Shown here piece by piece: positions 25,006 through 62,927 of a stretch of DNA of 64,000 bases. The notes beneath the pieces are model-generated. The model saw only the letters and a list, made by a program, of their open reading frames with translations, searched no databases and was not told the origin of the DNA. A program made the position numbers and the translations under genes. Position 1 is the stretch's first letter. The number at the start of each line of letters is the position of its first letter. The stretch is taken from positions 5,779,001 to 5,843,000 of the forward strand of contig NZ_CP034444.1 of the NCBI RefSeq assembly GCF_003952385.1. The letters run 5' to 3'. The DNA is from Mesorhizobium sp. M1D.F.Ca.ET.043.01.1.1. Its GTDB lineage: Bacteria > Pseudomonadota > Alphaproteobacteria > Rhizobiales > Rhizobiaceae.

Positions 25006-25072
25006 CGCGACCCTGGCCCAAAGTTTGGCAACACTCGCGGACTTTTTCACCGCAGACGCTTCCGCGATTGAC

Positions 25073-25116
25073 CGCACCTTTCAGGTGCGCTATTGAACAG
25101 GATTATACAGGTTCAA
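25073..25116. promoter_or_regulatory. Candidate operator region of the GntR/UTRA regulator
   Basis: Two inverted repeats lie just before the regulator gene: CGCACCT-TTC-AGGTGCG (25073-25089) and TTGAAC-N12-GTTCAA (25093-25116). The second encloses CAGGATTATACAGG, in which AGGATTATACAG reads CTGTATAATCCT on the minus strand; TGTATA-type cores are common in HutC/UTRA operators. An autoregulatory site is likely; which repeat is bound cannot be told. Confidence 0.4.
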
Positions 25117-25131
25117 TGAACAGGTATCGAT

Positions 25132-25857
25132 ATGGCTCGTCGCGCGATGCAACTCACCCCCGGCACGGGCAAGCCCGAGCAGATCGCGACCGTGCTGGAG
25201 CATGAGATCCGCTCCGGCGTGCTCGGCTTCGGCGACCGGCTGCAGAGCGAGAACGAGCTCGTGCAGCGCTTCTCGGTCAGCCGCAACACGGTCCGCAAAG
25301 GGCTGGAGGAGCTTTCCAGTCGGGGGCTCATCACCACCAAGGTCGGCATCGGTTCCTTCGTCACCTTCGACGGCATGCCGGTCGATGACGCGATCGGCTG
25401 GTCGCGCGCGCTTGCCAATGCGGGCGCCAATGCCGAGACCCGGACGCTGCGGCTCGAGATCATCGAGGATGCCGCGCTCGCGGCCAAACTCGGTGTCGAG
25501 AACCCATCCTTCATCGCCGTCGATCGCGTCCGCACCAATGCCGATGACGGCCATGCCATCTCGATCGAGCGCAGCCGCCTGCCGCTGTCGCCGGAGCTCG
25601 AAGATGTGCCGCTGCGCGGCCTGCGAGAAGGCTCGCTGCACCAGACGCTGCGCGGGGCAGGGCTGGTTCCCGATCATGGCGAGGAATGGGCCGACATCGA
25701 GATGCTGAGTGCCACCGATGCCGCGATCCTCGACTGCGCGCCGGGCACGCCGTTCCTGCGCACGCGGCGCCTGACGCGCGCCGCCGACGGCCGCGCCATC
25801 GAATTCGTCACCAGCCTGCTCAACCCGGCGCATTTCGCGCTGCATCTGGAATTTTGA
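25132..25857 (+). CDS. GntR-family regulator, HutC/UTRA type
   Basis: A 241-residue regulator: winged helix at about residues 14-80 (QIATVLEHEIRSGVLGFGDRL, SRNTVRKGLEELSSRGLI), then a UTRA ligand domain (about 95-235; FIAVDRVRTNADDG, AISIERSRLPL, GTPFLRTRRLT). UTRA regulators sense small pathway metabolites such as sugar phosphates or amino-acid derivatives. It is the first gene of a same-strand block extending to about 36.2 kb, with the next gene 3 bases downstream, so it very likely controls that block. Confidence 0.9.
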   Translation: MARRAMQLTPGTGKPEQIATVLEHEIRSGVLGFGDRLQSENELVQRFSVSRNTVRKGLEELSSRGLITTKVGIGSFVTFDGMPVDDAIGWSRALANAGANAETRTLRLEIIEDAALAAKLGVENPSFIAVDRVRTNADDGHAISIERSRLPLSPELEDVPLRGLREGSLHQTLRGAGLVPDHGEEWADIEMLSATDAAILDCAPGTPFLRTRRLTRAADGRAIEFVTSLLNPAHFALHLEF

Positions 25858-25859
25858 GC

Positions 25860-26888
25860 ATGGGCGCGGCCGATATGATGGACCGGGCAATGGGCGCGCT
25901 CGTCGGCGGCGCGCTTGGCGATGCGCTGGGCATGCCGACGCAGCTTTTGTCGCCCGCCCGCATCGCCGAGCTCTACGGCCGTGTCGAGGGCTTCGTGGCG
26001 CCTGTCGCCGACCATCCGGTGTCGAAAGGGCTGCCGGCCGGCGCCGTCACCGACGACACCGAACAGGCGCTCTTGCTTGGGCGCATCCTGGTCAGCTCCG
26101 GTGAGCGCTTCGACCACGCGCGCTGGGTGAACGCGCTGCTCGACTGGGAGCGCGACGTAAAGGCGCGCGGCAGCTACGACCTGCTTGGACCGTCGACCAA
26201 GCGCGCCATCGACGCGATCAACAACGGTGTGCCGGCCGAAGACGCTGGACGCGGCGGCGACACCAACGGCGCCGCGATGCGCATCGCGCCGGTCGGCGTC
26301 CTGATGCCGCCGGAGCCGCTCGACGCGCTGGTTGCGAAAGTCGCGGAAACCTGCCGGGCTACGCACAATACGTCGATTGCGATCGCCTCAGCCGCCGCGG
26401 TCGCTGCCGCGGTCAGTCTCGGTGTTTCGGGCGGCGACTGGCGCGCCGCTTCCGACCATGCCGTCGCGGCGGCAAAGCTTGGTGCGGCGCTCGGCCATTG
26501 GGTTACCGGCGGCGACATCGCCCGGCGTATCCTCTGGGCGCAGGAACTCGTCCGCGGCAAGTCGGAGAAAGATGCGATCGGGCTGATCGTCGATCTGATC
26601 GGAACCGGCGTCGCGAGCCAGGAATCGGTTCCGGTGGCGTTCGCCGTGCTGGAGGTGGCGCAAGGCGATGCGTGGCGGGCGGCCGTCATCAGCGCCAATC
26701 TCGGCGGCGACACCGACACGATCGGCGCCATCGCCGCCGGCATGGCGGGCGCCTGCGCCGGCCTGGCGCGGCTACCGCAGGATCGGATCGCGAGCCTGAA
26801 GGGCATCGACCTCGGCGAGGTCCGTACGCTGGCCGGCGATCTCGTCGCGGCGCGGGTCGCGGGCGGTTCCCGGAAGGAGGTTGCCTGA
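25860..26888 (+). CDS. ADP-ribosylglycohydrolase-family enzyme
   Basis: A 342-residue all-helical enzyme. Two dinuclear metal motifs are clear: TDDTE (residues 64-68) and GGDTDTIGAIAAGMAGA (from 282). A further GGDTNGAAMR lies mid-protein. The family cleaves N-glycosidic bonds to ribose, classically ADP-ribose on proteins (DraG, ARH3), but many members sit in sugar catabolism operons. It lies between a UTRA regulator and a PfkB kinase ahead of an ABC importer, with no ADP-ribosyltransferase nearby. I infer it releases a sugar from an imported N-glycoside or nucleoside-like compound. It overlaps the kinase gene by one base. Confidence 0.88.
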   Translation: MGAADMMDRAMGALVGGALGDALGMPTQLLSPARIAELYGRVEGFVAPVADHPVSKGLPAGAVTDDTEQALLLGRILVSSGERFDHARWVNALLDWERDVKARGSYDLLGPSTKRAIDAINNGVPAEDAGRGGDTNGAAMRIAPVGVLMPPEPLDALVAKVAETCRATHNTSIAIASAAAVAAAVSLGVSGGDWRAASDHAVAAAKLGAALGHWVTGGDIARRILWAQELVRGKSEKDAIGLIVDLIGTGVASQESVPVAFAVLEVAQGDAWRAAVISANLGGDTDTIGAIAAGMAGACAGLARLPQDRIASLKGIDLGEVRTLAGDLVAARVAGGSRKEVA

Positions 26889-27862
26889 TGGGCGGGCGCC
26901 TCGTTCATGTCGGCAGCGCGGTGGTGGATTACGTCTATCACGTCGATGCCTTGCCGGCGCCCGGCACCGAGAAGACCGCGTCGAGCTACGCGCGCGTTCC
27001 CGGCGGCGGCTTCAACATGATGGTCGCGGCGAGCCGTACCGGCATGAAGGTGGTGTTCGGTGGCCAGTTGGGAACGGGACCTGACGGCGACTTCCTGCGC
27101 GCCGCTTTCGCAGCCGAAGGCATCGAGACGCTGACGCCGCCGTCACCCTTGATGGACAGCGGCAATTGCGTCGCCATGATCAGCGGCGACGCCGAGCGGA
27201 CTTTCGTCTCCTGGCCGGGAGCCGAAAGCCGGCTCACGCCCGATATGATGGCTCCCGTCAAAGTCGGCCCCGGCGACTGGGTTTTCGCGTCAGGCTACAC
27301 GCTGAGCTATCCCGGCAGCCGCGATGCGCTCGCCGACTGGATCGAGGAGCTGCCGGCGGAAATTCCTTTCGTCTTCGACCCGACGCCGGTCATCGCCGAG
27401 ATTCCGCGGCCGATCCTGGATCGGGTGCTCACGCGCGCGACATGGCTGAGCTGCAACACCGATGAGGCCGCCGAAATCGCCGGCGCCGGCGATGCCCAGA
27501 CCATCGCCATCCGCTTGCTCTCCGAGCACTGCTCCGCAGCTAAAGGTGTCGTCATCCGGGCCGGCGCGCATGGTTGCCTGGTTCGCCTGGCCGACGGCGG
27601 CACGCGCGCCATTCCCGGCTTCGCGGTCCACGCCGTCGATACCAACGGCGCCGGCGACACCCATATCGGCGCCTTCGTCAGCGCTTTGTCGCGCGGTCTG
27701 TCGCCCTGCGGGGCTGCTTGCTACGCCAACGCGGCGGCGGCGCTTTCGGTTACCCGCCATGGCGGGTCGTCGGCGCCGACCGGCAACGAAATCCAGGAAT
27801 TCCTTGCCCAGCGCGATCAAGCGGCGGCCGAGCAGGACAAGGAGCAAGAGGCCACGACTTAA
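26888..27862 (+). CDS. PfkB/ribokinase-family sugar or nucleoside kinase
   Basis: The 324-residue kinase has the N-terminal GGG substrate motif (RVPGGGFNMMVAASRTG, residues 37-52) and the C-terminal signature DTNGAGDT (251-258), whose D257 is the catalytic base. It should phosphorylate a sugar or nucleoside hydroxyl with ATP. It starts inside the stop of the glycohydrolase gene (TGATG), so the two act in sequence: hydrolysis of a glycoside, then trapping of the sugar by phosphorylation. The C-terminal tail is rich in Q, E and K. Confidence 0.9.
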   Translation: MGGRLVHVGSAVVDYVYHVDALPAPGTEKTASSYARVPGGGFNMMVAASRTGMKVVFGGQLGTGPDGDFLRAAFAAEGIETLTPPSPLMDSGNCVAMISGDAERTFVSWPGAESRLTPDMMAPVKVGPGDWVFASGYTLSYPGSRDALADWIEELPAEIPFVFDPTPVIAEIPRPILDRVLTRATWLSCNTDEAAEIAGAGDAQTIAIRLLSEHCSAAKGVVIRAGAHGCLVRLADGGTRAIPGFAVHAVDTNGAGDTHIGAFVSALSRGLSPCGAACYANAAAALSVTRHGGSSAPTGNEIQEFLAQRDQAAAEQDKEQEATT

Positions 27863-27902
27863 CAAGCTCGCAAACCGGGCGAACAATGAGAGGAAAGAAA
27901 CC

Positions 27903-28967
27903 ATGCGCATGCCCAGACTGACCGCTTTTCTGACGGCGACCGCCGTCGTCGTTTCAGCATTCACGATTGCGGCTCGGGCCGCCGAAGAAGTGCATGTGCT
28001 CAACTGGAAGGGCTATGGCGCCGACGAACCCTGGGCTGTCGCCAATTTCGAGAAGGCGACGGGCTTCAAGGTCGTCAACGACTTCTTCAACTCCGAGCAG
28101 GAGATGCTGACCAAGCTCAGGACCAATCCCGGCCTTTACGACGTCGTGATGATCAATGCCGCCTTCAACGACCAGGCGATGGCCGGCAAGCTGATCCAGC
28201 CGATCGATGCCTCGAAGCTTTCCAACTATGCCGACATCGCCAAGGACAAGGCCGGCTCGCCGATGCTCAACCATGACGGCAAGGTCTATGGCGTGCCGTG
28301 GGTCTGGGGCCTGACCGCTGTCGCCATCAACGAAAAATCCTTCGACAAGCCGCCGACGAGCATCGACGAGATGTGGGATCCGGCGCATAAGGGCCGCGTC
28401 ATCATCCGCGACGATGCCGTCGAGGCGGTGCAGTTCGGGGCAATCGCCAGCGGCCAGAACATCAACGATATCAAGGACATGGACGCGGTCAAGACCAAGC
28501 TCACCTCGCTGATGCCGCAGATCAAGACCTTCTGGAGCTCGGAGAACGACTGGAACCAGATGGTCGCCTCCAACCAGATCGACATCGGCACCTACTGGAG
28601 CGGCTCGGCCGACCGCGCCAAGACGCATTTCAAGCTGCCGGTCTCGCTGGTCATCCCGCAGGAAGGCGCCGTCGCCTGGCTCGACGCCTTCTCGATCCCA
28701 GCCGGCTCCAAGAACGTCGCCGGCGCCGAGGCCTTCATCAACTACATGATCGACCCGAAATTCTACGTCGAATGGGTCACCAAGGTCGGCGCGCCGGTGT
28801 CGGCCAACACCAAGGCGGTCGAGGCGCTGCCCGAGGACGCCTTCAACCGCAAGGTCATGGGCAGCCCCGAGGTCGCCAAGCGCATCCAGTTCCAGGCGCC
28901 GATCACCGACGAGCAGCGCGAGAAATACCTGGCGCTGTGGCAGGAGCTGAAGGTCAACGTGAAGTAG
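27903..28967 (+). CDS. ABC importer binding protein, spermidine/putrescine (PotD) type
   Basis: A 354-residue periplasmic protein with a signal peptide (about residues 1-24, ending AARAAEE). EVHVLNWKGYGADEPWA at the mature start is the PotD-like strand usually written LNW. The type-2 two-lobe fold (FNSEQEMLTKLR, YGVPWVWGLTAVAINEK) belongs to the polyamine/opine cluster. The usual ligands are polyamines, mannopine-like opines or other cationic compounds. The ribosome site GAGGAAAG precedes ATG 27903. It is followed by its two permeases and ATPase. Confidence 0.9.
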   Translation: MRMPRLTAFLTATAVVVSAFTIAARAAEEVHVLNWKGYGADEPWAVANFEKATGFKVVNDFFNSEQEMLTKLRTNPGLYDVVMINAAFNDQAMAGKLIQPIDASKLSNYADIAKDKAGSPMLNHDGKVYGVPWVWGLTAVAINEKSFDKPPTSIDEMWDPAHKGRVIIRDDAVEAVQFGAIASGQNINDIKDMDAVKTKLTSLMPQIKTFWSSENDWNQMVASNQIDIGTYWSGSADRAKTHFKLPVSLVIPQEGAVAWLDAFSIPAGSKNVAGAEAFINYMIDPKFYVEWVTKVGAPVSANTKAVEALPEDAFNRKVMGSPEVAKRIQFQAPITDEQREKYLALWQELKVNVK

Positions 28968-28997
28968 CCGGCGTCTTTCGGGGAGGAGAGGCAAAAA

Positions 28998-29867
28998 ATG
29001 GCTGACCAGCTTGCGATGGGTTCGCGCCGCAGCCTCAAGCCGGCCCTACCGCTTCTCCTTCCCGCCTATCTGTGGCTGACGGTGGCGATCTTCCTGCCGC
29101 TGTCGGCCATGGTCTTCTTCTCCTTCATGACCGACCTGCCGCTGGCCGGGAAGGAATGGTCGTTCACGCTCGGCAACTACGCGGCCTTCTTTTCGCAAAG
29201 CCTTTATCTGACGCTTCTTCTGGCTTCGCTGCGCCTCGGCCTGGAGGTCACGCTGTGGTGTGTCGTCATCGGCTATCCGGCGGCCTATGTGCTGGCGAAG
29301 GTGCTCAAAGGCCGCAGCCGCGAGGCGATCTTCCTGCTGGTCATCCTGCCGTTCTGGTCGAATGGGCTGGTGCGCATCTTCTCCTGGGCGATGGTGCTGC
29401 GCGAGGGCGGCATCCTCGACACGGCGCTCAACGCCGTGCTGCCGTTCAAGATCAACATCGACCTGATGTATTCCTATCCGGCGGTCCTCATCGGCCTGGT
29501 GCACTCCTATGTGCCCTACATGGTGCTGACCTGCTACCTCACGCTGCAGGCGATCGACGACTCGCTGATCGAGGCCGGCCGCTCGCTCGGCGCCTCGCGC
29601 CTGCAGGTGCTCAAGCGGGTGATCATCCCGCTGTCGATGCCCGGCCTGATCGCGGGCGCGGCGCTGATCTTCGTGCCGGTCGTCGGCTCCTTCATGGAGC
29701 CGCGCATCCTCGGCGGCCGCACCGGCACCTTCTACGGAACCATCATCGAGGACCAGTTCGTCGCCGTCTTCAACTGGCCGCTGGGCGCGGCGCTGTCCTT
29801 CATCCTGCTCGCTGTCGTGCTGATCATCCTGGCACTCGCGGCGCCGGTCCTGCGGAGGGCCGCCTGA
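28998..29867 (+). CDS. ABC importer permease, PotB type
   Basis: A 289-residue inner-membrane protein with about six hydrophobic segments and the EAA loop (EAGRSLGASRLQVL...IIPLSMPG). It corresponds to PotB/PotH and pairs with the next gene. The ATG at 28998 has GGGAGGAGAGG upstream. Its stop overlaps the start of the second permease by one base. Confidence 0.92.
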   Translation: MADQLAMGSRRSLKPALPLLLPAYLWLTVAIFLPLSAMVFFSFMTDLPLAGKEWSFTLGNYAAFFSQSLYLTLLLASLRLGLEVTLWCVVIGYPAAYVLAKVLKGRSREAIFLLVILPFWSNGLVRIFSWAMVLREGGILDTALNAVLPFKINIDLMYSYPAVLIGLVHSYVPYMVLTCYLTLQAIDDSLIEAGRSLGASRLQVLKRVIIPLSMPGLIAGAALIFVPVVGSFMEPRILGGRTGTFYGTIIEDQFVAVFNWPLGAALSFILLAVVLIILALAAPVLRRAA

Positions 29868-30655
29868 TGGCGACGACGCGCATCCTCGAATGGGTCGGGC
29901 GCTTCTACATCGTGCTGCTGCTCGCCTTCCTCTATCTGCCGATCATCATCATGGCGCTGATGTCGTTCAACGCCTCGCCCTTCTACCAGCTGCCGTTCGA
30001 GTGGACGACGGACTGGTATCAATCGCTCTGGCAGAACGACCAGCTGATCGCGGCGACCTGGAACAGCATCGAGATCGCGGTCATCACCACCATCATCTCG
30101 ACGGTGCTGGGGTCGATGGCGTCGCTCGCGCTCTATCGCTACGAGTTCCGCGGCAAGAAATTCCTGCAGGTGCTGCTCTTCCCGCCGATCGCCATACCGT
30201 GGCTGATCACCGGCACGGCGATGCTGATCTTCTTCTTCGGCATTGGCATCGGCCGCGGCCTCGTCGCCATCCTGCTCGGCCATGTCGCGCTGGCGCTGCC
30301 TTACGTGATCGTCGTCGTGTCCGCGCGGCTGCAGACCTTCGCGCCGGAGCTGGAGGAGGCGGCGCGCTCGCTCGGCGCCAACCAGTGGCAGGTGACGAAC
30401 CGTGTCACGCTGCCCTGGATCATGCCCGGCGTTATTGCCGGCGGGCTGTTCGCATTCGCCGTGTCGTTCGACCAGTTCGTGGTTTCGTATTTCCTCTCGA
30501 CGCCTGGCCAGACGACTTTGCCGGTCGAAATCTACGCCGCGATCCGCAAGGGATTCACGCCCGAGATCAACGCGGTGTCGACGATCATCATCGTGGTGTC
30601 GATGGCCCTGATGCTGCTTACGGCGCGTTTCTTCAAATTCGGCGGAGAGAAATGA
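29867..30655 (+). CDS. ABC importer permease, PotC type
   Basis: The 262-residue second permease has six hydrophobic segments and the EAA loop (EEAARSLGANQWQV...LPWIMPG), matching PotC. It starts in the stop of the previous gene (TGATG) and overlaps the ATPase gene by 4 bases. Together the two form a heterodimeric channel. Confidence 0.92.
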   Translation: MATTRILEWVGRFYIVLLLAFLYLPIIIMALMSFNASPFYQLPFEWTTDWYQSLWQNDQLIAATWNSIEIAVITTIISTVLGSMASLALYRYEFRGKKFLQVLLFPPIAIPWLITGTAMLIFFFGIGIGRGLVAILLGHVALALPYVIVVVSARLQTFAPELEEAARSLGANQWQVTNRVTLPWIMPGVIAGGLFAFAVSFDQFVVSYFLSTPGQTTLPVEIYAAIRKGFTPEINAVSTIIIVVSMALMLLTARFFKFGGEK

Positions 30656-31722
30656 TGGCAGGCGTCCAGGTAGCGAACGTCTCCCGCAGTTTTGGTGCGC
30701 ACAAGGCGCTGGACGACGTCTCGATCGATTTCGCGGACGGCGGCTTCTATGCGCTGCTTGGGCCGTCCGGCAGCGGCAAGACCACGCTGCTCAGGCAGAT
30801 CGCCGGCTTCGACTTTCCCGATTCCGGCCGCATCGCCATCGGCGGCGAAAGCGTCGAGCGCGTGCCAGTCGAGAAGCGGCGCATCGGCATGGTGTTCCAG
30901 AACTATGCGCTGTTCCCCAACATGAGCGTCGCCGACAACGTCGCTTTCGGTCTGTCGGTGCGCGGCGAAGCGAAGGCGACGATCGCAGCGGAAGTGCAGC
31001 GCGCGCTCGACCTCGTGCAACTCGGCAAGCTCGGCACCCGCCGGCCGCATCAGCTTTCCGGCGGCCAGCGCCAACGCGTGGCGCTCGCCCGTGCCATCGT
31101 CACCAAGCCGCGCGTGCTCTTGCTCGACGAGCCGCTCGGCGCGCTCGACAAGGCGCTGCGCGTCGACATGCAGATCGAATTGAAGCGCATCCAGCGCGAG
31201 ATCGGCATCACCACCATTTTCGTCACCCATGACCAGGAAGAGGCGCTGACGATGAGCGACCGCATCGGCATCCTGCGCGATGGCAGGCTGGTGCAGGAGG
31301 GGCCGCCGGAAGAGATCTACGACCGGCCGCAAAGCGAGTTCGCCGCGACCTTCCTCGGCGACGCCAACATCTTTCGCGGCGATGCCACCGGCAATGGCAT
31401 CAGGTTGCCGGATGGCACAGCCATCGCCGCCGCTTCCGGCGCGCCTGTCCCAGCTGGCGCCAGGGCGAGCTGCGCCGTGCGGCCGGAGCGCATCCAGATC
31501 TCGACCGGCCTGGCAAAGCCCGACACCGGCAATGCCAACACGCTCGAAGGGCAGGTCTCGAAACGGATCTTCGCCGGCAACAACAGCACCTATTTCGTGG
31601 AGCGAGACGGTCAGACGCTGAAGGTCATCGTCCAGAACACCGGCGCCGACAGGCTGGCCGAGGGCGAGCCCGTGGTGCTCAGCTGGTCGCCGGAAAGCAC
31701 GGTGCTGATCGCGGCGAACTGA
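30652..31722 (+). CDS. ABC importer ATPase, PotA type
   Basis: A 356-residue ATPase with Walker A GPSGSGKTT (about residues 38-46), Q-loop VFQNYALFPNM, signature LSGGQRQRVALARAI and Walker B LLLDEPLGALD. The extra C-terminal regulatory domain (TOBE, from about residue 265) is typical of PotA/UgpC. A second ATG at 30655 is possible. It ends the transporter; an 86-base gap with a GC hairpin (CGGGCC/GGCCCG near 31750-31770) separates it from the next gene. Confidence 0.93.
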   Translation: MMAGVQVANVSRSFGAHKALDDVSIDFADGGFYALLGPSGSGKTTLLRQIAGFDFPDSGRIAIGGESVERVPVEKRRIGMVFQNYALFPNMSVADNVAFGLSVRGEAKATIAAEVQRALDLVQLGKLGTRRPHQLSGGQRQRVALARAIVTKPRVLLLDEPLGALDKALRVDMQIELKRIQREIGITTIFVTHDQEEALTMSDRIGILRDGRLVQEGPPEEIYDRPQSEFAATFLGDANIFRGDATGNGIRLPDGTAIAAASGAPVPAGARASCAVRPERIQISTGLAKPDTGNANTLEGQVSKRIFAGNNSTYFVERDGQTLKVIVQNTGADRLAEGEPVVLSWSPESTVLIAAN

Positions 31723-31808
31723 TGTAACTGCTGATGGGAAATGATGGCGCGGGCCTTGGCCGAGGCCCGGACCATGGCGTTATATCCAGTCCTCGACGGG
31801 AGGAATGG

Positions 31809-32897
31809 ATGGCTGACGTGGGTTTCGAGCCCGACGTAAAGATCCGGGTCAAGGACTACCGGATCGGCTGCATCGGCGCCGGCATGATCATGGCCGAATG
31901 CCATCTCGCCGCCTACAAGGAAGCCGGGTTTGCCGTCGTCGCAATTGCCTCGCGCACCAGGGCGAATGCCGAGAAGGTCGCGGCCCGCTGGGGCATTTCG
32001 ACCGTCCACGACACGCCGGAGCAATTGATCGAGGACAACAGCGTCGAGATCGTCGATCTTGCCTTCCCGCCGGATCAGCAGCCGGCGCTGATCCGTCATG
32101 CGCTGAGACAACCGCACGTCAAGGCGATCCTGGCGCAGAAGCCGCTGGCGCTGTCGGTCGAGGAGGCGGTGAAGCTGCGCGACGAGGCGGCCAAGTCCGG
32201 CAAGATCCTCTCGGTCAACCAGAACATGCGCTACGACCAGTCGATGCGCGTCCTGAAGCAGATCATCGACAGCGGGGCGCTGGGCGAGATCGTCTTTGCC
32301 GAGATCGACATGCACGCGATCCCGCATTGGCAAACCTTCCTTGCCGGTTACGACCGGCTGACGCTCGCCAATATGAGCGTGCACCACCTCGACGTGCTGC
32401 GCTTCCTGTTCGGCGATCCGGACGAGATCACCACGCTGACGCGCAAGGATCCGCGCACGCGATTTGAGCATTCCGACGGCATCACGGTGTCGACGCTCAG
32501 ATTTCCCTCTGGCGTGCTCGCCGTGTCGCTGGAAGATGTCTGGTCCGGCCCGCGTCAGCAAGGTTATCAGGACGACCAGCACATCAACTGGCGCGTCGAC
32601 GGCACCAAGGGCGTTGCCAAGGGCACGATCGGCTGGCCGAAAGGCATAGCCTCGACGCTGACCTACGCCTCGACCGAGACGACCGGCGGCAAATGGGTCA
32701 GCCCAGGCTGGGAGACGATGTGGTTCCCGCATGCTTTCATCGGCGTGATGGAGCAACTGCAATATGCGCTCAAGACCGGCACGCCGCCGGCGCTTTCGGT
32801 TGCCGACAACGTCAAGACCATGGAGCTCGTCGAGGCCGGCTACCGCTCAATGGCGGAAGGCCGGACCATCAGGCTCGCCGAAGTCCCTGTCGACTGA
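31809..32897 (+). CDS. Gfo/Idh/MocA-family oxidoreductase
   Basis: A 362-residue NAD(P)-dependent dehydrogenase. The Rossmann motif is IGCIGAGMIMAECH (about residues 18-31), the conserved lysine lies in AQKPLALSVEEA, and the C-terminal half is the alpha/beta substrate domain. The family oxidises or reduces cyclitols, amino-cyclitols and sugars. MocA of rhizopine catabolism is a founding member and also sits with MocD- and MocE-type genes. GGGAGG precedes ATG 31809. It begins the second half of the catabolic block. Confidence 0.9.
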   Translation: MADVGFEPDVKIRVKDYRIGCIGAGMIMAECHLAAYKEAGFAVVAIASRTRANAEKVAARWGISTVHDTPEQLIEDNSVEIVDLAFPPDQQPALIRHALRQPHVKAILAQKPLALSVEEAVKLRDEAAKSGKILSVNQNMRYDQSMRVLKQIIDSGALGEIVFAEIDMHAIPHWQTFLAGYDRLTLANMSVHHLDVLRFLFGDPDEITTLTRKDPRTRFEHSDGITVSTLRFPSGVLAVSLEDVWSGPRQQGYQDDQHINWRVDGTKGVAKGTIGWPKGIASTLTYASTETTGGKWVSPGWETMWFPHAFIGVMEQLQYALKTGTPPALSVADNVKTMELVEAGYRSMAEGRTIRLAEVPVD

Positions 32898-32948
32898 GGC
32901 AGGCAAAAGACACGACGACAGAACCGCTTACCCGGAGGACTTCACCTC

Positions 32949-33863
32949 ATGATGCAGGCAGGGATCTTTACAGGCTATTTCCCCTACGAGCTCGAGGAGG
33001 TCGCCAGGCGCATCCGCGCGCTCGATTTCAACACGGTGCAGCTCGATCTGCATTTCAAGGATATCGATCTGTCGGCCGGGCGGATCACCAGGGACAAGGC
33101 GCGGAAGGTGCGCGATGCATTTCGCGACCATAACCTGCCGGTCTGCTGCGTGTCCGGCTACACCAACATCATTCATCCGGACAAGGCCGAGCGCGAGCGG
33201 CGGCTGGCGTATCTGAAGGAGATCATCCGCAACGCGCGCGAATTCGGCAGCCCTTACGTGATCTCGGAAACCGGCACCTACAACACCGAATCCGACTGGG
33301 TGCACCATCCGAAGAACAAGACCGAGGAGGGGTTCGAGGAATGCCGCAAAGTGATTTCCGACCTTGCCCAGACGGCTTACGACCATGGCGCGGTGTTCCT
33401 GCTCGAGACCTATGTCAACAACGTCGTCGGTTCGGTCGAGGAGACCGTGAAAATGTTCGCGCAGGTCGACCATCCCGGCCTCGGCCTGCTGATGGATCCG
33501 ACCAATTATTTCGAGGCGCACAACATCGACTGCATGGATCAAGTGCTGAACCAGGTGTTCGACACGCTGACCGACAAGATCAAGATCGCGCATGCCAAGG
33601 ACGTCAAGCGCTCGGGCAGCGACAAGACGGAAAAGCATGCCGATATCGGCGACGCGGATGCGCATGAAGGACTGACGTTCCGGGGCGTCGGTGAGATCGA
33701 ATTGCCGGCGCCGGGGCTCGGTGCGCTCAACTACGACGTCTATCTCAAGCGGCTCAGCGAGAAGCATCCGAACATTCCGGTGATCATCGAGCATCTCTCT
33801 GAGGACGACGTGCCGCGGGCGAAGAAATTCCTCGACGGGAAATTCCGCGCCAACGGGCTTTGA
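32949..33863 (+). CDS. TIM-barrel sugar isomerase/epimerase family protein
   Basis: A 304-residue member of the xylose-isomerase-like superfamily (also containing IolE, IolI and MocC). Likely metal ligands are E153 (LLETY), D183 (MDPTNYF), H215 (AHAKDVK) and E281 (IIEHL). The reaction could be epimerisation, isomerisation or dehydration of an inosose-like keto compound. GGAGG precedes ATG 32949. Its neighbours, a MocA-like dehydrogenase and a MocD-like oxygenase, favour a cyclitol or sugar derivative as substrate. Confidence 0.87.
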   Translation: MMQAGIFTGYFPYELEEVARRIRALDFNTVQLDLHFKDIDLSAGRITRDKARKVRDAFRDHNLPVCCVSGYTNIIHPDKAERERRLAYLKEIIRNAREFGSPYVISETGTYNTESDWVHHPKNKTEEGFEECRKVISDLAQTAYDHGAVFLLETYVNNVVGSVEETVKMFAQVDHPGLGLLMDPTNYFEAHNIDCMDQVLNQVFDTLTDKIKIAHAKDVKRSGSDKTEKHADIGDADAHEGLTFRGVGEIELPAPGLGALNYDVYLKRLSEKHPNIPVIIEHLSEDDVPRAKKFLDGKFRANGL

Positions 33864-33880
33864 CGACCGGGGAGGTGACG

Positions 33881-34975
33881 ATGACGGCCGCCGGGACGAA
33901 GCGCGATTACAGCCTTGTCGGTGAGAGCGCGCGCAAGGCGATCGAGACCGGGCTTGCCTCGGCCGAGTGGTACCACACCGACGTGGCGCGCAAGACCATC
34001 AAGGAGCTGATGCAGCGTTCCGATGGGCCGGCGATCCGCGACACCACCATCTGGATTGTCGCGATCCTGGGCTCCGCCGCCGGCATCGTCTGGTTCTGGG
34101 GCACATGGCGGGTCGTGCCGTTCCTGTTCGTCTACGGCGTGCTCTATGGCTCCTCGAGCGACTCGCGCTGGCACGAATGCGGCCACGGCACCGCCTTCCG
34201 CACGCGCTGGATGAACGACGTCGTCTACCACATCGCCTCCTTCATGCTGATGCGCAATCCGGTGCAGTGGCGCTGGAGCCACGCGCGGCACCACACCGAC
34301 ACCATCATCGTCGGCCGCGATGCCGAGATCGCGGTGATGCGGCCGCCGGATCTCATCAAGGCGGCGCTCGCCTTCACCGGCATCCTCGACTTCCGCTATT
34401 CGCTGCCGACGCTGGTGCGTCAGGCCTTCGGCGAGCTGTCGGACGACGAGAAGAGCTACATCCCTCAGATGGAACAGCATAAGGCGGTGATTGCCGCGCG
34501 CTGGCACATGGTCGTGTATGCCGCGACGATCGCTGTCGCGATCGCGCTTGGGTCATGGATACCGCTGGTGCTGATCGGCCTGCCGCGCCTTTACGGCACC
34601 TGGCACATGGTGATGACCGGGCTTTTGCAACATATCGGGCTCGCCGACAACGTCACCGACCACCGGCTCAACACGCGCACCGTCTACATGAACCCGGTCA
34701 GCCGGTTCATCTACTGGAACATGAACTACCATGTGGAGCATCACATGTTCCCGATGGTGCCCTATCACGCGCTGCCGAAGCTGCACGAGCTGATCAAGCA
34801 CGATCTGCCGGAACCGAACCCGTCGATATGGCATGCCTATCGCGAGGTCTGGCCGGTGCTGCTCAGGCAGCTGAAATACGAGGACTATTACATCAAGCGC
34901 GAACTGCCGCCGACGGCCAAGCCTTATCGCGGTGAGTTCCACGAGGTCGACATGACGACAACGGCCGCCGAATAG
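33881..34975 (+). CDS. Fatty-acid-desaturase-fold membrane oxygenase (MocD-like)
   Basis: A 364-residue integral membrane di-iron protein. Three histidine boxes are visible: HECGH (residues 98-102), HARHH (134-138) and HVEHH (284-288), with hydrophobic segments around 55-90 and 205-235. In rhizopine catabolism MocD is the hydroxylase of this fold that works with the Rieske protein MocE, probably to remove an O-methyl group. Here too the Rieske gene follows directly. GGGGAGG precedes ATG 33881. The role as O- or N-demethylase is inferred from that pairing; no reductase (MocF-like) gene is in the window. Confidence 0.88.
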   Translation: MTAAGTKRDYSLVGESARKAIETGLASAEWYHTDVARKTIKELMQRSDGPAIRDTTIWIVAILGSAAGIVWFWGTWRVVPFLFVYGVLYGSSSDSRWHECGHGTAFRTRWMNDVVYHIASFMLMRNPVQWRWSHARHHTDTIIVGRDAEIAVMRPPDLIKAALAFTGILDFRYSLPTLVRQAFGELSDDEKSYIPQMEQHKAVIAARWHMVVYAATIAVAIALGSWIPLVLIGLPRLYGTWHMVMTGLLQHIGLADNVTDHRLNTRTVYMNPVSRFIYWNMNYHVEHHMFPMVPYHALPKLHELIKHDLPEPNPSIWHAYREVWPVLLRQLKYEDYYIKRELPPTAKPYRGEFHEVDMTTTAAE

Positions 34976-35020
34976 GCGTCGCGCAGCAATCCCGAGGAAG
35001 ATGATGACCGGAGAGAGACG

Positions 35021-35335
35021 ATGGCGGACTGGGTCGAAGCTTGCGCGGTGGACGACGTGGATGAGGAGGACGTGATCCGCTTCGACCATGGCGGCCGCAG
35101 CTTCGCGATCTTTCGCTCGCCTGACGACGAGTTCTTCGCCACCGATGGTTTCTGCACGCATGAAAAGGCGCATCTGGCCGACGGGCTGGTGATGAACGAC
35201 ATCATCGAATGCCCCAAGCACAATGGCCGCTTCAACTACAAGACCGGCCAGGCCAAGGGCGCGCCGGTCTGCGTCAACCTCAGGACCTATCCGGTCAAGG
35301 TCGAGGCCGGCAAGGTCTTGATCGAAATCGGCTGA
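35021..35335 (+). CDS. Rieske [2Fe-2S] ferredoxin (MocE-like)
   Basis: A 104-residue soluble Rieske protein. Cluster ligands are C45 and H47 (CTHEKAHL) and C64 and H67 (CPKHNGRF). The small size fits an electron-transfer ferredoxin, not a catalytic oxygenase subunit. It should carry electrons to the desaturase-fold oxygenase encoded 45 bases upstream, as MocE is thought to do for MocD. The electron source must be encoded elsewhere. Confidence 0.93.
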   Translation: MADWVEACAVDDVDEEDVIRFDHGGRSFAIFRSPDDEFFATDGFCTHEKAHLADGLVMNDIIECPKHNGRFNYKTGQAKGAPVCVNLRTYPVKVEAGKVLIEIG

Positions 35336-35371
35336 GCCGCCAAACGCCCGAAGAATGAGGAACACCAATCG

Positions 35372-36175
35372 ATGAGCCGAAAGAGACCGACCGTTGCCGA
35401 TCTGCGCGCCATGAAGGGCAAGCGGCAGCTGACCATGTTGCGCGTGTTGACGCTCGATGAGGCCGAAGCCGCCGAGCGCGCCGGCATCGACATCGTCTCG
35501 GTGCCGCCGGAGCTGGTGCTCAATCCTGAGTACCGTGATGCTGCACCCAGCCTCTTCACCATGCCTGGCGAGAACTTCTTCGAGATCGGCACGGCGGACG
35601 ATTTCCTGCGCTGGGCTTTCCGGCTCTACAAGGCCGGAGCCGATGCGGTCTACTGCAGCGCCGGCTATGCCACTATCAAGCGGATGGCAGAAGACGCCAT
35701 TCCGGTCATCGGCCATGTCGGCCTGATCCCGTCGCGCGCGACCTGGACCGGCGGGTTCAAGGCCGTCGGCAAGACCGCCGACACGGCGATCAAGGTGTTC
35801 GAGGCGGTGAAGCAGCTGGAAGCCGCCGGCGCGATCGGCGCCGAGATCGAGGTGGTGCCGGTCGAGGTGGCGAAGGCGATCTCCGAGCGCACCTCGCTGA
35901 TCATGCTGTCGATGGGCGCGGGCACGGGCTGCGATGCGCAATACCTGTTCGCCGAAGATATTCTCGGCGCCAATCGCGGTCACATGCCGCGCCATTCGAA
36001 AGTCTATCGCAACTTCGCCGCCGAATACGACCGGCTGCAGGCGGAGCGGATCGCGGCGTTCTCCGAATATGCCGCGGACGTCAACAGCGGCGCCTATCCG
36101 GAAGACCGGCATGTCGTGCATATGGATGCGGACGAGCTCACTCTCTTCATGAGGAAGGTGGACGAAAAAGCCTAA
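35372..36175 (+). CDS. Ketopantoate hydroxymethyltransferase (PanB)-like protein lacking the metal site
   Basis: A 267-residue TIM-barrel protein of the PanB/PEP-mutase superfamily. The second half aligns well with PanB: GHVGLIP (114-120), GGFKAVGKT (127-135), the catalytic-type glutamate in EVVP (160-163), MGAGTGCDAQ and SGAYPEDRHVVHM. The first half does not. The VGDSLG metal aspartate is replaced by VPPELV (44-49), the ADLPF region is shortened, and VKIEGG becomes VYCSAG (93-98), so all three magnesium ligands are gone. It is thus unlikely to be the pantothenate enzyme; panC is not adjacent. It ends the catabolic block and may act on a pathway aldehyde or keto-acid. Confidence 0.8.
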   Translation: MSRKRPTVADLRAMKGKRQLTMLRVLTLDEAEAAERAGIDIVSVPPELVLNPEYRDAAPSLFTMPGENFFEIGTADDFLRWAFRLYKAGADAVYCSAGYATIKRMAEDAIPVIGHVGLIPSRATWTGGFKAVGKTADTAIKVFEAVKQLEAAGAIGAEIEVVPVEVAKAISERTSLIMLSMGAGTGCDAQYLFAEDILGANRGHMPRHSKVYRNFAAEYDRLQAERIAAFSEYAADVNSGAYPEDRHVVHMDADELTLFMRKVDEKA

Positions 36176-36183
36176 GCGCGTCG

Positions 36184-36275
36184 CGATCTTTCAGATTCAC
36201 GATGCGTTTTAGGTTTTTGATTTGCGCATGTCTTTATCCCGAAAACCGGTTCCCACTTTCGGGAGACATGCTCTA
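36184..36275. repeat. Dispersed rhizobial palindromic element
   Basis: An inverted repeat GCATGTCT...AGACATGC (36226-36271) has nested CCCGAAA/TTTCGGG arms and a T-rich flank (36190-36222). A truncated relative lies at 18719-18752. It fills the gap between the convergent PanB-like and ammonia-lyase-like genes and could serve as a two-way terminator. Confidence 0.65.
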
Positions 36276-37778
36276 AGCAAGCAGTATCTGGTGCACCGCA
36301 GGGCGCCAATAGCCATCGGCGAGCACGGCGTGGAGCGCGTCGGCATTGGGTCCCAGCGGCCGGTCTTCCTTGAGCGTCGGCACATGGGCGCGGACGGCCG
36401 CGTGGATCGTGCCGGTGGCGGGCGCCAGCGTCAGCCCTTCGCGCAGGTCGATCGCCTGCGCCGCTGCCATCAGCTCGAGGGCGATCAGGCGCCGCCACAG
36501 CACGATCATCTCGGCGCATTTGGCGACGGCAAGCGGCGTCTGCGTGGCGTGGTCCTCAACGCCCTCGGACACGGGCAGGAAGTCGAGCATCACCGGATTG
36601 GCCTTGTGGCGGATGGCGGCCAGGATCGCCGTCACCGTCTTCTGCAGCGGCACGAAGCCGGCGGAAGCGCCGCCAACCGGCGACAGGTATTTCGGCAGGC
36701 CGTGGCGGGTTGAGCCGGTGAGCTGGATGAAGCGGGCGGCGGAAGCCGCCGCACATTGGGCGATCGCGAGGCCCAGCGTCTCGAAGGCCAGCGACAGCGA
36801 GGCGGTGTGGAAATTGCCTGTCGACAGCACCAGCGCGTCTTCGGCAAGGACCAGCGGGTTGTCGGCGGACGCGTTGAGCTCGATCTCGACGGCGAGCCTG
36901 GCATGGTCGATCGCCTGGATCAGCGCCCCGTGGATCGAGGGCATGCAGCGGATCGACAGCGGATCCTGAAGCGCGGTCGGCGGCGCTACCTCGTCCCGGG
37001 CGAGCAGGTCGCGCAACGCCTTTGCCGCGACCTGCTGGCAGGCAGCCGGCCGCGCCAGATGCAGGCGCGCGTCAAGGATGGTGCGGTTGGCGCCCAGCGC
37101 CTCCATGGTGAGCGCGCCGGCTTGTTGTTGCTGTTCCAGTGCCGAGAGCGCATCGGTCAGCGCCAGCGCGCCGGCGCCGGTGGAGACAGCGGAAGCGTTG
37201 ATCAGCGACAGGCCGTCCTTGGGAGCCAGGCCGACCGGCGCAAGGCGCGCCATCATCAGCGCCTTTGCCGAGGGCATGCGCCTACCCTGATAGTCGGCGT
37301 CGCCTTCGCCGATCAGCGTATGAGCGATCGCCGTCATCAGCACCAGGTCGCCGGCGCCGATCGAGCCAAGCGAGGGCATCACCGGATGGACGCCGGCGTT
37401 GAGCAGATCGACGAACGCGGTGAAGACATGCGGCGACAGACCGGAGCCGCCTGCCGCGAGCATGGCGATACGGGCGAACATTGCGGCGCGCACGAGCTGC
37501 GCAGACAGTGCGTTTCCCACCGCGGCGCCGCGTCCGTCGAGAAGCTGGCGCTGGAAGGCGTCGGCATCGCCTTCGACTGTCGTGCCGAGATTGGCGCCCA
37601 GCCCGGTGTTCAGCCCATAGATCTGCTGGCCACCGGCCGCAGCGGCGTCGAGGACCTCGCGCGCCTTGGCCAGTCTTTCGATGACGGCAGGCGTGACTTC
37701 GATCTTGCCCGCGTTGCGCGCGACGGCGGCCACGTCCTCGATGCTGACACCGGCGCCGGTGAGAACGAGCGGGGTCAT
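36273..37778 (-). CDS. Histidine/aromatic ammonia-lyase-family protein without the Ala-Ser-Gly triad
   Basis: A 501-residue protein with the full-length HAL fold. YGLNTG (54-59) keeps the catalytic tyrosine, and ADNPLV, STGNFH and VEDHATQ are in place. The cofactor loop, normally GSVGASGDL, reads GSIGAGDL (138-145), one residue short with no serine. The MIO cofactor that forms from Ala-Ser-Gly therefore cannot form in the usual way. The conserved Tyr of DPYSLRC is also Leu (DPLSIRC). It is probably a divergent lyase or an enzyme with other chemistry. It starts inside the ornithine-cyclodeaminase-like gene (4-base overlap), so the two act together. No other hut genes are present. Confidence 0.85.
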   Translation of the reverse strand: MTPLVLTGAGVSIEDVAAVARNAGKIEVTPAVIERLAKAREVLDAAAAGGQQIYGLNTGLGANLGTTVEGDADAFQRQLLDGRGAAVGNALSAQLVRAAMFARIAMLAAGGSGLSPHVFTAFVDLLNAGVHPVMPSLGSIGAGDLVLMTAIAHTLIGEGDADYQGRRMPSAKALMMARLAPVGLAPKDGLSLINASAVSTGAGALALTDALSALEQQQQAGALTMEALGANRTILDARLHLARPAACQQVAAKALRDLLARDEVAPPTALQDPLSIRCMPSIHGALIQAIDHARLAVEIELNASADNPLVLAEDALVLSTGNFHTASLSLAFETLGLAIAQCAAASAARFIQLTGSTRHGLPKYLSPVGGASAGFVPLQKTVTAILAAIRHKANPVMLDFLPVSEGVEDHATQTPLAVAKCAEMIVLWRRLIALELMAAAQAIDLREGLTLAPATGTIHAAVRAHVPTLKEDRPLGPNADALHAVLADGYWRPAVHQILLA

Positions 37779-58310: not shown

Positions 58311-58552
58311 AGTCCGCCGGCAACCTGGCTGTTCCAAGGTTGTCTACCGGCGCAAAGGGAGGGGCCAGGTGGGGCGGCGGCACTCGTCCGTGCTCTTTCG
58401 CTTGACGTCGCGCCCGAATACTGGATGCAGCAGGCTATTTACTTGGACAGGCTTTGGGCGGAAAATTGCGAAGTGGGAGGAAGCACTCGGAAAATCTCCT
58501 GAATAAATGCGCTCGAACGGCTTCCGCCCGTTGAATGCAAGGGAGGATAATC

Positions 58553-59635: not shown

Positions 59636-59658
59636 ATGTCGAAGCGATCCTGAACCCG

Positions 59659-59687
59659 GCGCGGGAGGATTTCTCCCGCGCATTTTG
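59659..59687 (+). terminator. Intra-operon terminator-like hairpin
   Basis: GCGCGGGAG (59659-59667) pairs perfectly with CTCCCGCGC (59673-59681) across a 5-base loop, followed by ATTTTGG. It lies between the binding-protein and permease genes and probably gives partial termination or 3'-end protection. Confidence 0.65.
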
Positions 59688-59712
59688 GCCTTCGGAACCC
59701 TTCATCAAGAAA

Positions 59713-62737: not shown

Positions 62738-62927
62738 CCACCGAGGCTTGGACTGAGGGCTTATCGCCTCTACCGGGTGGGCTGAACCAATATTCGTCGG
62801 CTTGACAATGGCCATGGCCTGCGCGACCCAGACCGGAATGGGACGGGCTGCGAAACATGGCTGCTGTGGCTAAGCTGTCGATCCTCAACTCGCCGCTTCG
62901 CTCCTCTCGTGCAAAAAGGGCAAGGCG

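What the first reader, a model, noticed from the sequence alone, without database searches (positions are those of the whole stretch)
25132..36175. An 11-kb same-strand catabolic block with no described counterpart that I recognise
UTRA regulator, ADP-ribosylglycohydrolase-family enzyme, PfkB kinase, polyamine/opine-type importer, MocA-like dehydrogenase, TIM-barrel isomerase, MocD-like oxygenase, MocE-like Rieske protein and a PanB-like protein stand head to tail with overlaps or short gaps. Read as a pathway: import a cationic or N-linked compound, cleave an N-glycosidic bond, phosphorylate the sugar, and process an O- or N-methylated (amino)cyclitol or sugar by demethylation, oxidation and isomerisation. 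It resembles rhizopine catabolism in its oxygenase pair but differs in transporter, hydrolase and kinase.
Basis: partly seen in the sequence, partly recalled or inferred. Interest (0 to 1): 0.78.

Follow-up and report, generated by a model that had tools for sequence, protein, structure and literature searches.

The report
Two neighbouring catabolic operons, one stripped
In a nitrogen-fixing soil bacterium, what looks like one 11-kilobase operon is probably two independent gene sets lying side by side: one likely breaks down imported nucleoside-like compounds, and the other is a pared-down set, likely for removing methyl groups from plant sugar alcohols, that has lost its own importers and repressor.

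Summary
The genome is Mesorhizobium-like. The single-pathway reading is not supported.

Genes 1-7 (25132-31722) match E. coli yegW/yegU/yegV (27/35/32% identity), with PotDBCA in place of YegT; genes 1-7 or 2-7 stand alone in 4 of 5 plasmid regions opened. Likely N-glycoside import, hydrolysis and sugar phosphorylation.

Genes 8-12 (31809-36175) have their own conserved ~75-bp leader: found in 22 of 22 named compact relatives and 0 of 53 others. It is homologous to the LacI/importer intergenic region of those others, so the compact form looks like a deletion product that lost LacI, two importers and a DUF4432 gene. Genes 8-12 stay under purifying selection; in 8 of 51 congeneric genomes with gene 8, gene 2 is not found.

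MocD-MocE-PanB-like also occurs in a rhizopine (moc) locus, followed there by PurU. The PanB-like subfamily lacks ketopantoate hydroxymethyltransferase's (recalled) metal and lysine residues but keeps its His and Glu. I propose it handles the C1 unit of O-demethylation. Substrates (for example pinitol or ononitol) and all reactions are inferred, not shown.

The parts
25132..25857 (+). Gene 1: GntR-family regulator with UTRA domain (YegW/GgaR-like)
   Evidence: PF00392 + PF07702; 27% to E. coli YegW, 1e-13
25860..26888 (+). Gene 2: ADP-ribosylglycohydrolase-fold hydrolase (YegU-like); TDDT and GGDTDT stretches present (their role as metal-site motifs is recalled)
   Evidence: PF03747 1.1e-60; 35% over 296 aa to YegU, 4e-53
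26888..27862 (+). Gene 3: PfkB/ribokinase-family kinase (YegV-like)
   Evidence: PF00294 1.8e-40; 32% to YegV; only hit of YegV in the own genome at E<=1e-10
27903..28967 (+). Gene 4: PotD-type periplasmic binding protein
   Evidence: SBP_bac_8; PotD NF007048 158.9 bits, below its cut-off of 582; best PDB matches are spermidine/putrescine-binding proteins
28998..29867 (+). Gene 5: PotB-type permease
   Evidence: BPD_transp_1
29867..30655 (+). Gene 6: PotC-type permease
   Evidence: ORF; conserved between genes 5 and 7 in relatives; not scanned for domains
30655..31722 (+). Gene 7: PotA-type ATPase (start 30652 or 30655)
   Evidence: TIGR01187 370.8 bits over cut-off 355.6
31731..31808 (+). Conserved non-coding leader of genes 8-12; begins with CTGATGGGAAATGATG (31731-31746); homologous to the LacI/importer intergenic region of relatives
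   Evidence: taken as non-coding because 1-2 bp indels between relatives break the frame
31809..32897 (+). Gene 8: Gfo/Idh/MocA oxidoreductase (inositol-dehydrogenase-like; only 29% over 190 aa to the moc-locus MocA)
32949..33863 (+). Gene 9: xylose-isomerase-like TIM barrel (weakly IolE-like)
   Evidence: PF01261 7e-28; IolE model only 20.6 bits
33881..34975 (+). Gene 10: MocD, fatty-acid-desaturase-fold oxygenase
   Evidence: PF00487; 68% to MocD of the R. indicum moc locus
35021..35335 (+). Gene 11: MocE, Rieske [2Fe-2S] ferredoxin
   Evidence: TIGR02377 187.8 bits, over cut-off
35372..36175 (+). Gene 12: PanB-like protein of a subfamily lacking E. coli PanB residues D84, K112, E114
   Evidence: PF02548 1.3e-40; residues

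Best explanation
Two functionally separate catabolic operons abut. (A) Genes 1-7 are a GntR-controlled yegUVW-type module: a PotDBCA importer brings in an N-glycoside (nucleoside-like), the ADP-ribosylglycohydrolase-fold enzyme splits the N-glycosidic bond, and the PfkB kinase phosphorylates the released sugar. (B) Genes 8-12 are the stripped remnant of a larger LacI-controlled operon for an O-methylated cyclitol or sugar (pinitol/ononitol class). A deletion removed LacI and a sugar importer and joined the old operon promoter region to gene 8; a second importer plus DUF4432 was lost between genes 9 and 10. MocD/MocE hydroxylate the methoxy group, giving the free cyclitol and a formaldehyde-level C1 unit; gene 12 takes part in passing this unit to tetrahydrofolate (FolD/PurU steps encoded elsewhere); genes 8-9 oxidise and isomerise or dehydrate the ring or sugar. 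Shown here: module boundaries in relatives, the leader and its homology, the derived position of the compact form on the tree, selection, gene families. Inferred: promoter activity, substrates, every reaction, and gene 12's role.
For: yegWUV similarity. Genes 1-7 stand alone on plasmids of Mesorhizobium, Rhizobium and Burkholderia, genes 2-7 in Paracoccus; Paraburkholderia has genes 1-3 with a cytosine permease (5 of 10 hit records opened; no genes 8-12 in the 10-kb flanks of any). Genus survey: 43 of 61 genomes have genes 2 and 8; of 40 on one contig, 9 are compact and 27 have 12.9-25 kb between the gene starts; 8 of 51 genomes with gene 8 lack a gene 2 hit. A sugar-importer ATPase lies just upstream of gene 8 in 52 of 53 named mid/long loci and 0 of 22 compact ones. 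Tree rooted on other genera: compact form nested among importer-bearing forms, 21-row clade at 100% SH-aLRT. Motif CTGATGNGAAATGATG lies in the LacI-to-importer gap in 7 of 7 fetched loci with the full importer, and 60-110 bp before gene 8 in 21 of 22 named compact loci; 0 of 53 mid/long loci have it within 150 bp of gene 8. LacI orthologue not in the own genome, best 44%. dN/dS of genes 8-12 0.06-0.12, close to importer-bearing relatives. MocD-MocE(-MocF)-PanB-like order in 7 of 7 opened plasmid regions of this MocD family, PurU next in 3, FolD in 2; one is a moc locus with MocR over cut-off and moc boxes; one adjoins iol genes.
Against: Conserved proximity of the two modules (39 of 40) could mean shared function; flanking genes are also syntenic, so inheritance is the simpler account, but a link is not excluded. 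Seven of the 8 genomes with gene 8 but no gene 2 are not known to be compact (6 are mid/long, 1 not measurable); compact loci without adjacent genes 1-7 are fewer: G059, L048, L069, and L233 in a genome with gene 2 elsewhere. No transcript data: read-through from gene 7 across 86 bp is possible and no terminator-like site was called there. MocF is missing from genes 8-12. PanB-like proteins also occur without MocD: in the class sample 9 of 19 hits whose surroundings I fetched (of 21) have MocD or MocE within about 3 kb, and 6 of 12 examined MocD hits (of 17) have a PanB-like neighbour. Some relatives lack a detectable MocE next to MocD. No substrate is shown for either module.
Confidence: 0.66

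Rival explanations
1. One pathway: a methylated, N-linked compound enters through PotDBCA, is split by gene 2, its sugar is phosphorylated by gene 3, and the other half is demethylated, oxidised and isomerised by genes 8-12.
For: Head-to-tail on one strand; proximity conserved in 39 of 40 same-contig genomes; in the compact clade the lost importers leave PotDBCA as the nearest importer in many loci.
Against: Genes 8-12 persist where gene 2 is not found (8 of 51 genomes) or where genes 1-7 are not within 6.4-6.7 kb upstream (L048, L069), and where an aconitase-X-like gene intervenes (L015 and L037 read directly; G012, G022, G039, G059); genes 1-7 or 2-7 stand alone elsewhere; relatives keep a LacI and two importers with genes 8-12.
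Confidence: 0.13
2. Operon capture: the two sets had different substrates, but after the deletion PotDBCA (and read-through from the GntR promoter) now also serves genes 8-12 in the window's clade.
For: 86-bp gap without a called terminator; none of the 22 named compact loci shows the sugar-importer ATPase upstream of gene 8 or the internal importer; judged by their binding proteins, the own genome keeps only 50% and 30% relatives of the two lost importers; purifying selection on genes 8-12.
Against: The leader is conserved whatever lies upstream; some compact loci have no genes 1-7 next to them (L048, L069, L233), so another importer must suffice there. A ribose-type importer with a LacI regulator at G000:C1:1.41 Mb is a candidate.
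Confidence: 0.2
3. Genes 8-12 are a rhizopine (3-O-methyl-scyllo-inosamine) catabolic operon.
For: MocD 68%, MocE 75% and PanB-like 65% identical to the R. indicum moc locus.
Against: No MocB, MocR or MocF adjacent, gene 8 only 29% to moc-locus MocA, no moc-box pair at up to 5 mismatches in the 64-kb window.
Confidence: 0.08

Closest known systems
E. coli yegTUVW (YegW = GgaR regulator, YegU ADP-ribosylglycohydrolase, YegV sugar kinase)
   Same: Same three families in genes 1-3; 27/35/32% identity; transporter gene in the same cluster.
   Different: Transporter is PotDBCA (ABC) rather than YegT (MFS, nucleoside:H+ symporter family, as PMC10819704 predicts); gene order differs. The E. coli genes have no clear function; PMC10819704 (passages) proposes ADP-glucose as effector of YegW.
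Rhizopine catabolism moc locus (mocBA, mocC, mocR, mocDEF)
   Same: MocD-MocE order and high identity; the PanB-like gene also follows mocDEF in R. indicum pPR13E04.
   Different: No mocF, mocB, mocR or moc boxes here; gene 8 is not close to MocA (29%).
Ketopantoate hydroxymethyltransferase (PanB)
   Same: Pfam PF02548 over residues 76-244; H136 and E181 kept.
   Different: D84 to G and K112 to Y in 15 of 15, E114 lost in 15 of 15, D45 lost in 13 of 15 aligned members; below both NCBIfam cut-offs.
[quoted passage not shown]
   Same: A demethylating enzyme sits with PurU and FolD, its C1 unit passing to methylene-THF (PMC3891541, a review, passages); PurU and FolD also follow MocDEF-PanB-like in M. 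huakuii and A. tumefaciens plasmids.
   Different: Amine (N-methyl) oxidase there; desaturase-fold oxygenase with Rieske ferredoxin here; PurU and FolD are not adjacent in the window.
MocA-IolE-like / DUF4432 / SDR clusters of Pararhizobium, Sinorhizobium, Pseudosulfitobacter and Variovorax
   Same: Genes 8-9 in the same order at 67-76% and 69-85% identity; LacI plus sugar importer directly upstream in Pararhizobium and Pseudosulfitobacter, LacI alone in Sinorhizobium K101.
   Different: No MocD, MocE or PanB-like match in these four ~21-kb regions; DUF4432 and SDR follow instead. 4 of 74 hit records opened.

Membership tests
Rhizopine (moc) catabolic locus | MocD and MocE oxygenase pair | tested here: met
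   68% and 75% to R. indicum moc copies; TIGR02377 over cut-off
Rhizopine (moc) catabolic locus | MocF ferredoxin reductase | tested here: not met
   None between genes 10 and 12 or next to them; a second MocDEF-PanB-like set with MocF lies at G000:C1:3.18 Mb
Rhizopine (moc) catabolic locus | MocR regulator and moc boxes | tested here: not met
   No moc-box pair at up to 5 mismatches in the window; an NF052281 protein exists at G000:C1:3.145 Mb but without a MocD match in the 20 kb around it
Rhizopine (moc) catabolic locus | MocB rhizopine-binding protein | tested here: not met
   The only importer in the block is PotD-type
Ketopantoate hydroxymethyltransferase (PanB) | Metal ligands and active-site lysine D45, D84, K112, E114 (residue roles recalled, not from a call) | tested here: not met
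   Window P/G/Y/S; 228 of 228 close relatives have G and Y at positions 84 and 112
Ketopantoate hydroxymethyltransferase (PanB) | H136 and E181 | tested here: met
   H in 15 of 15 and 227 of 228; E in 15 of 15 and 228 of 228
yegUVW-type module | Adjacent GntR-UTRA regulator, ADP-ribosylglycohydrolase and PfkB kinase homologous to YegW, YegU, YegV | tested here: met
   gene 3 is YegV's only hit in the genome at 1e-10
yegUVW-type module | YegT-type symporter | tested here: not met
   PotDBCA instead; no YegT match among the block's proteins; Paraburkholderia has a cytosine permease
yegUVW-type module | N-glycoside hydrolase and sugar kinase activity | not testable with these tools
PotABCD polyamine importer | Polyamine-specific binding protein | tested here: inconclusive
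   PotA subfamily cut-off passed; PotD equivalog cut-off not passed (158.9 of 582 bits)

The most novel reading that the evidence does not exclude
The PanB-like partner of MocD/MocE is a distinct, metal-site-free offshoot of ketopantoate hydroxymethyltransferase that loads the formaldehyde-level carbon released by O-demethylation onto tetrahydrofolate, making MocDE(F)-PanB-like-FolD-PurU a general bacterial O-demethylation and C1-salvage cassette for methylated cyclitols, including an unnoticed step of rhizopine catabolism. Many proteins called 3-methyl-2-oxobutanoate hydroxymethyltransferase in databases would then be misnamed.
Probability: 0.3. Interest if true: 0.68.

Novelty: new variant of a known kind. 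Interest (0 to 1): 0.47.

Why it matters
It turns an apparent novel 11-kb pathway into separately testable units. It links the uncharacterised E. coli yegUVW triad to an ABC-importer version in rhizobia. It shows an operon that lost its repressor and both importers yet kept its promoter region and stayed under selection. And it points to a PanB-like protein tied to methyl-ether cleavage, including in a rhizopine locus of the kind used for engineered plant-microbe signalling. O-methyl inositols are abundant in legume nodules, including those of Lotus japonicus, a Mesorhizobium host (PMC8730688, passages).

Tried and rejected
Rejected: the block as one conserved operon; rhizopine membership; gene 12 as a true PanB; leader as an N-terminal extension of gene 8 (frame-breaking indels); two independent origins of the compact form, since L029/L037 look recombinant (genes 8-9 nearest compact loci, by small margins of about 1-3 points; genes 10-12 nearest long/mid loci); L070 as the ancestor of the compact form (it lacks the upstream importer but sits elsewhere in the tree, so it is a parallel partial loss); NF052281 MocR hits as markers of moc loci (13 of the 15 over-cut-off hits fetched; none had a MocD match in its 20 kb).

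Led nowhere: literature searches with 0 hits; Rfam scan of 24000-37500 (one sub-threshold repeat-like hit); promoter/terminator scan (7 terminator-like sites against 6.5 expected; 4 promoter-like against 1.5, none in the 7-8 gap); a DNA alignment with misplaced coordinates (redone); structure prediction (not completed); Bahar et al. 1998 not held (only its title seen, in a reference list).
Full report
Observation. All twelve genes are present on the + strand at the stated places, with clear families (gene 6 by place and conservation only). The window lies in a 7.13-Mb, one-contig genome; gene 12's nearest named relatives are Mesorhizobium. The largest gap inside the block is the 86 bp between genes 7 and 8.

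First half, genes 1-7. BLASTP against E. coli K-12 gives GntR-YegW 27% (1e-13), ADPRH-YegU 35% over 296 aa (4e-53) and PfkB-YegV 32% (4e-34). YegV's only match in the own genome at E<=1e-10 is gene 3. A plasmid search found 10 records with gene 2; I opened 5. Genes 1-7 are complete in Mesorhizobium pB1-1-8, Rhizobium TH2 and Burkholderia stagnalis; genes 2-7 in Paracoccus albus; Paraburkholderia has GntR, ADPRH, a cytosine permease and PfkB. None of the five held genes 8-12 within 10 kb. Transporters of the symporter (YegT) and cytosine-permease type suggest a nucleoside-like substrate; that is inference. The E. coli cluster itself is unresolved: one paper proposes that YegW senses ADP-glucose (PMC10819704, passages).

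Second half, genes 8-12. The scan for gene 12 kept its best 80 of 185 loci. In 75 of these 80, genes 8 and 12 can both be placed: 22 compact (3.2-3.6 kb from gene 8 to gene 12), 12 with DUF4432 only (4.5-4.9 kb) and 41 long (7.6-7.7 kb, with a ribose-type importer plus DUF4432). A sugar-importer ATPase lies just upstream of gene 8 in 52 of the 53 mid/long loci (not L070) and in 0 of the 22 compact ones. Of 8 mid/long regions fetched further upstream, 7 show LacI plus the whole five-gene importer; L230 has LacI but no such importer. PurU follows gene 12 in 14 of 80.

Distance between the halves. Of 61 genomes of the genus, 43 carry genes 2 and 8; 40 on one contig; 39 of these within 26 kb on the same strand; 9 at 5.9-6.0 kb, 3 at 7.8-8.0 kb, 27 at 12.9-25 kb, and 1 (G027, with two copies) far apart. 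All 12 close cases have the short 8-to-12 distance, all 27 wider ones a longer one. Eight genomes have gene 8 without a gene 2 hit (E<=1e-40); of these one is compact (G059), six are mid/long and one could not be measured. Two have gene 2 without a gene 8 hit at the threshold used; one of them (G039) keeps gene 12 and a piece of gene 8 but no match to genes 9-11. In L015 and L037 the ORF between genes 7 and 8 is a 416-aa aconitase-X type protein; L015's copy scores 398 of 700 bits for cis-3-hydroxy-L-proline dehydratase, below that cut-off. The same gene lies there in G012, G022, G039 and G059.

Polarity. A tree of genes 8, 9, 10 and 12 (79 rows, quick method, SH-aLRT only), rooted on genes 8-9 of Pararhizobium, Sinorhizobium and Pseudosulfitobacter, nests the compact form inside the importer-bearing forms: one clade of 21 rows (100%) with the window, plus L029/L037. 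The latter look recombinant. Polarity rests on this rooting; L167 has a long branch, and some deep forks are weak.

Leader. The ~75 bp before gene 8 align in all compact loci, whether the upstream neighbour is gene 7, an aconitase-X gene, IclR or something else. A BLASTN search with the window's 73-bp core hits 22 of 22 named compact loci and 0 of 53 mid/long loci. Indels break any reading frame. Its 5' part aligns with the LacI-importer intergenic region in all 7 loci with the complete importer (0 of 300 mononucleotide shuffles reached the score in six, 1 of 300 in L222); it does not in L230 (54 of 300). The motif CTGATGNGAAATGATG lies there once, exactly, in each of the 7; it lies between LacI and gene 8 in L070; and it lies 60-110 bp before gene 8 at up to 1 mismatch in 21 of 22 named compact loci (exception L059), exactly in the window, and at 76-78 bp in 6 of 6 compact G loci. 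A 2-mismatch copy lies between LacI and the importer in Pararhizobium L165 and, on the other strand, in Pseudosulfitobacter L167; none in L166. The window has one other 2-mismatch copy (62572, minus strand). A shuffle of 375 kb gave 0 hits. So the compact leader is best read as the old importer promoter region joined to gene 8. The LacI orthologue was not found in the own genome (best 44%, against 76-95% in genus loci).

Selection. Median pairwise dN/dS (NG86; 18 chosen loci per group, 15 for MocE in compact) in compact against long/mid: gene 8 0.110/0.089, gene 9 0.060/0.053, gene 10 0.116/0.111, gene 11 0.098/0.079, gene 12 0.069/0.062. The stripped set is still constrained.

The MocD-MocE-PanB-like cassette. 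Of 273 plasmid records with a MocD match I opened 8; 7 belong to this family and all 7 have the PanB-like gene directly after MocE or MocF, with PurU in 3 and FolD in 2; the eighth is a distant desaturase. R. indicum pPR13E04 is a moc locus: MocR 739 bits over cut-off 650, and moc-box pairs as defined in PMC10107442 (passages) before mocD (2 mismatches) and mocB (4 mismatches); a third 4-mismatch pair lies before iolE, and unrelated loci gave 0-1 pairs at 5 mismatches. In Aestuarium the cassette adjoins genes annotated as inositol catabolism. In the class-wide sample (337 genomes) the link is weaker: of 21 PanB-like hits I looked around 19, and 9 have MocD or MocE within about 3 kb; of 17 MocD hits I looked around 12, and 6 have a PanB-like neighbour. 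Some contigs end nearby, and several unlinked PanB-like proteins share a different N-terminus.

Gene 12. Aligned with E. coli PanB and one PanB of the own genome, 15 of 15 members lack D84 (Gly), K112 (Tyr) and E114; H136 and E181 are invariant. In 228 proteins returned by two searches the same holds, with one H136 exception; these are top hits, not a random draw. Residue roles are recalled. PurU/FolD partners and the purU-mabO-folD precedent (PMC3891541, passages) suggest C1 handling. In the paper library no text holds both 'rhizopine' and '3-methyl-2-oxobutanoate hydroxymethyltransferase'; a wider search returned four papers, and the passages seen of two of them do not describe this link. 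Subscription papers are mostly not covered.

Substrate. R. mesoamericanum mocDEF-like genes rise with Mimosa exudate in which pinitol is the most concentrated component, though those authors suggest rhizopine (PMC5789663, passages). Pinitol and ononitol accumulate in Lotus japonicus nodules (PMC8730688, passages). This fits an O-methyl inositol but does not show it.

Open point. How substrate now reaches genes 8-12 is unknown. Judged by their binding proteins, close orthologues of the two lost importers are not in the own genome (best 50% and 30%). A related importer with a 43-44% LacI relative lies at 1.41 Mb with only a weak motif match (3 mismatches) upstream.

Change at checking: confidence in the best explanation went from 0.68 to 0.66 and in the single-pathway rival from 0.12 to 0.13, because most genomes with gene 8 but no gene 2 are not of the compact type.

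Noticed in passing
window 36143-36283 (-): Sub-threshold match to Rfam BASRCI27 (Brucella sRNA CI27, 50.8 bits against 59.8), overlapping the end of gene 12; may be a dispersed rhizobial repeat.
   Followed up: no
G000:C1:3183261-3186753 (L162) and G000:C1:665424-666173 (L163): Second LacI-MocDEF-PanB-like set (MocD 69%, PanB-like 65%) and a third PanB-like gene (48%) with MocE about 2.2 kb away in the same genome.
   Followed up: partly
L018, L035, L036, L059, L069, L080: No MocE match at 60% and the gene 8 to gene 12 distance about 300 bp shorter than in neighbours on the tree: MocD seems to persist without an adjacent ferredoxin gene.
   Followed up: partly
L015, L037 (read directly); G012, G022, G039, G059: Aconitase-X / cis-3-hydroxyproline-dehydratase-like gene (below that family's cut-off) between genes 7 and 8.
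   Followed up: partly
L225 (G059): Genes 8-12 with a PotA match (90%) upstream but no gene 2 hit in the genome: genes 1-7 may be decaying there.
   Followed up: no
L059 953-6825: About 5.9 kb with another ABC ATPase (44% to PotA) between gene 7 and gene 8 in an otherwise compact locus; no LacI or CUT-importer match.
   Followed up: no
L207, L208, L209, L210, L212: PanB-like proteins with a different N-terminus (such as MASHATGDG), two in tandem in L209, without MocD; some lie beside ORFs that look PhyH-like by eye: perhaps a second PanB-like subfamily.
   Followed up: no
L202, L203 (genomes of 1.4 Mb): MocD-like and PanB-like genes adjacent or overlapping, without MocE between them.
   Followed up: partly
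window 58535-63956: Ribose-type binding protein and a LacI regulator by Pfam, with permease and ATPase ORFs between: another sugar importer near the block.
   Followed up: no
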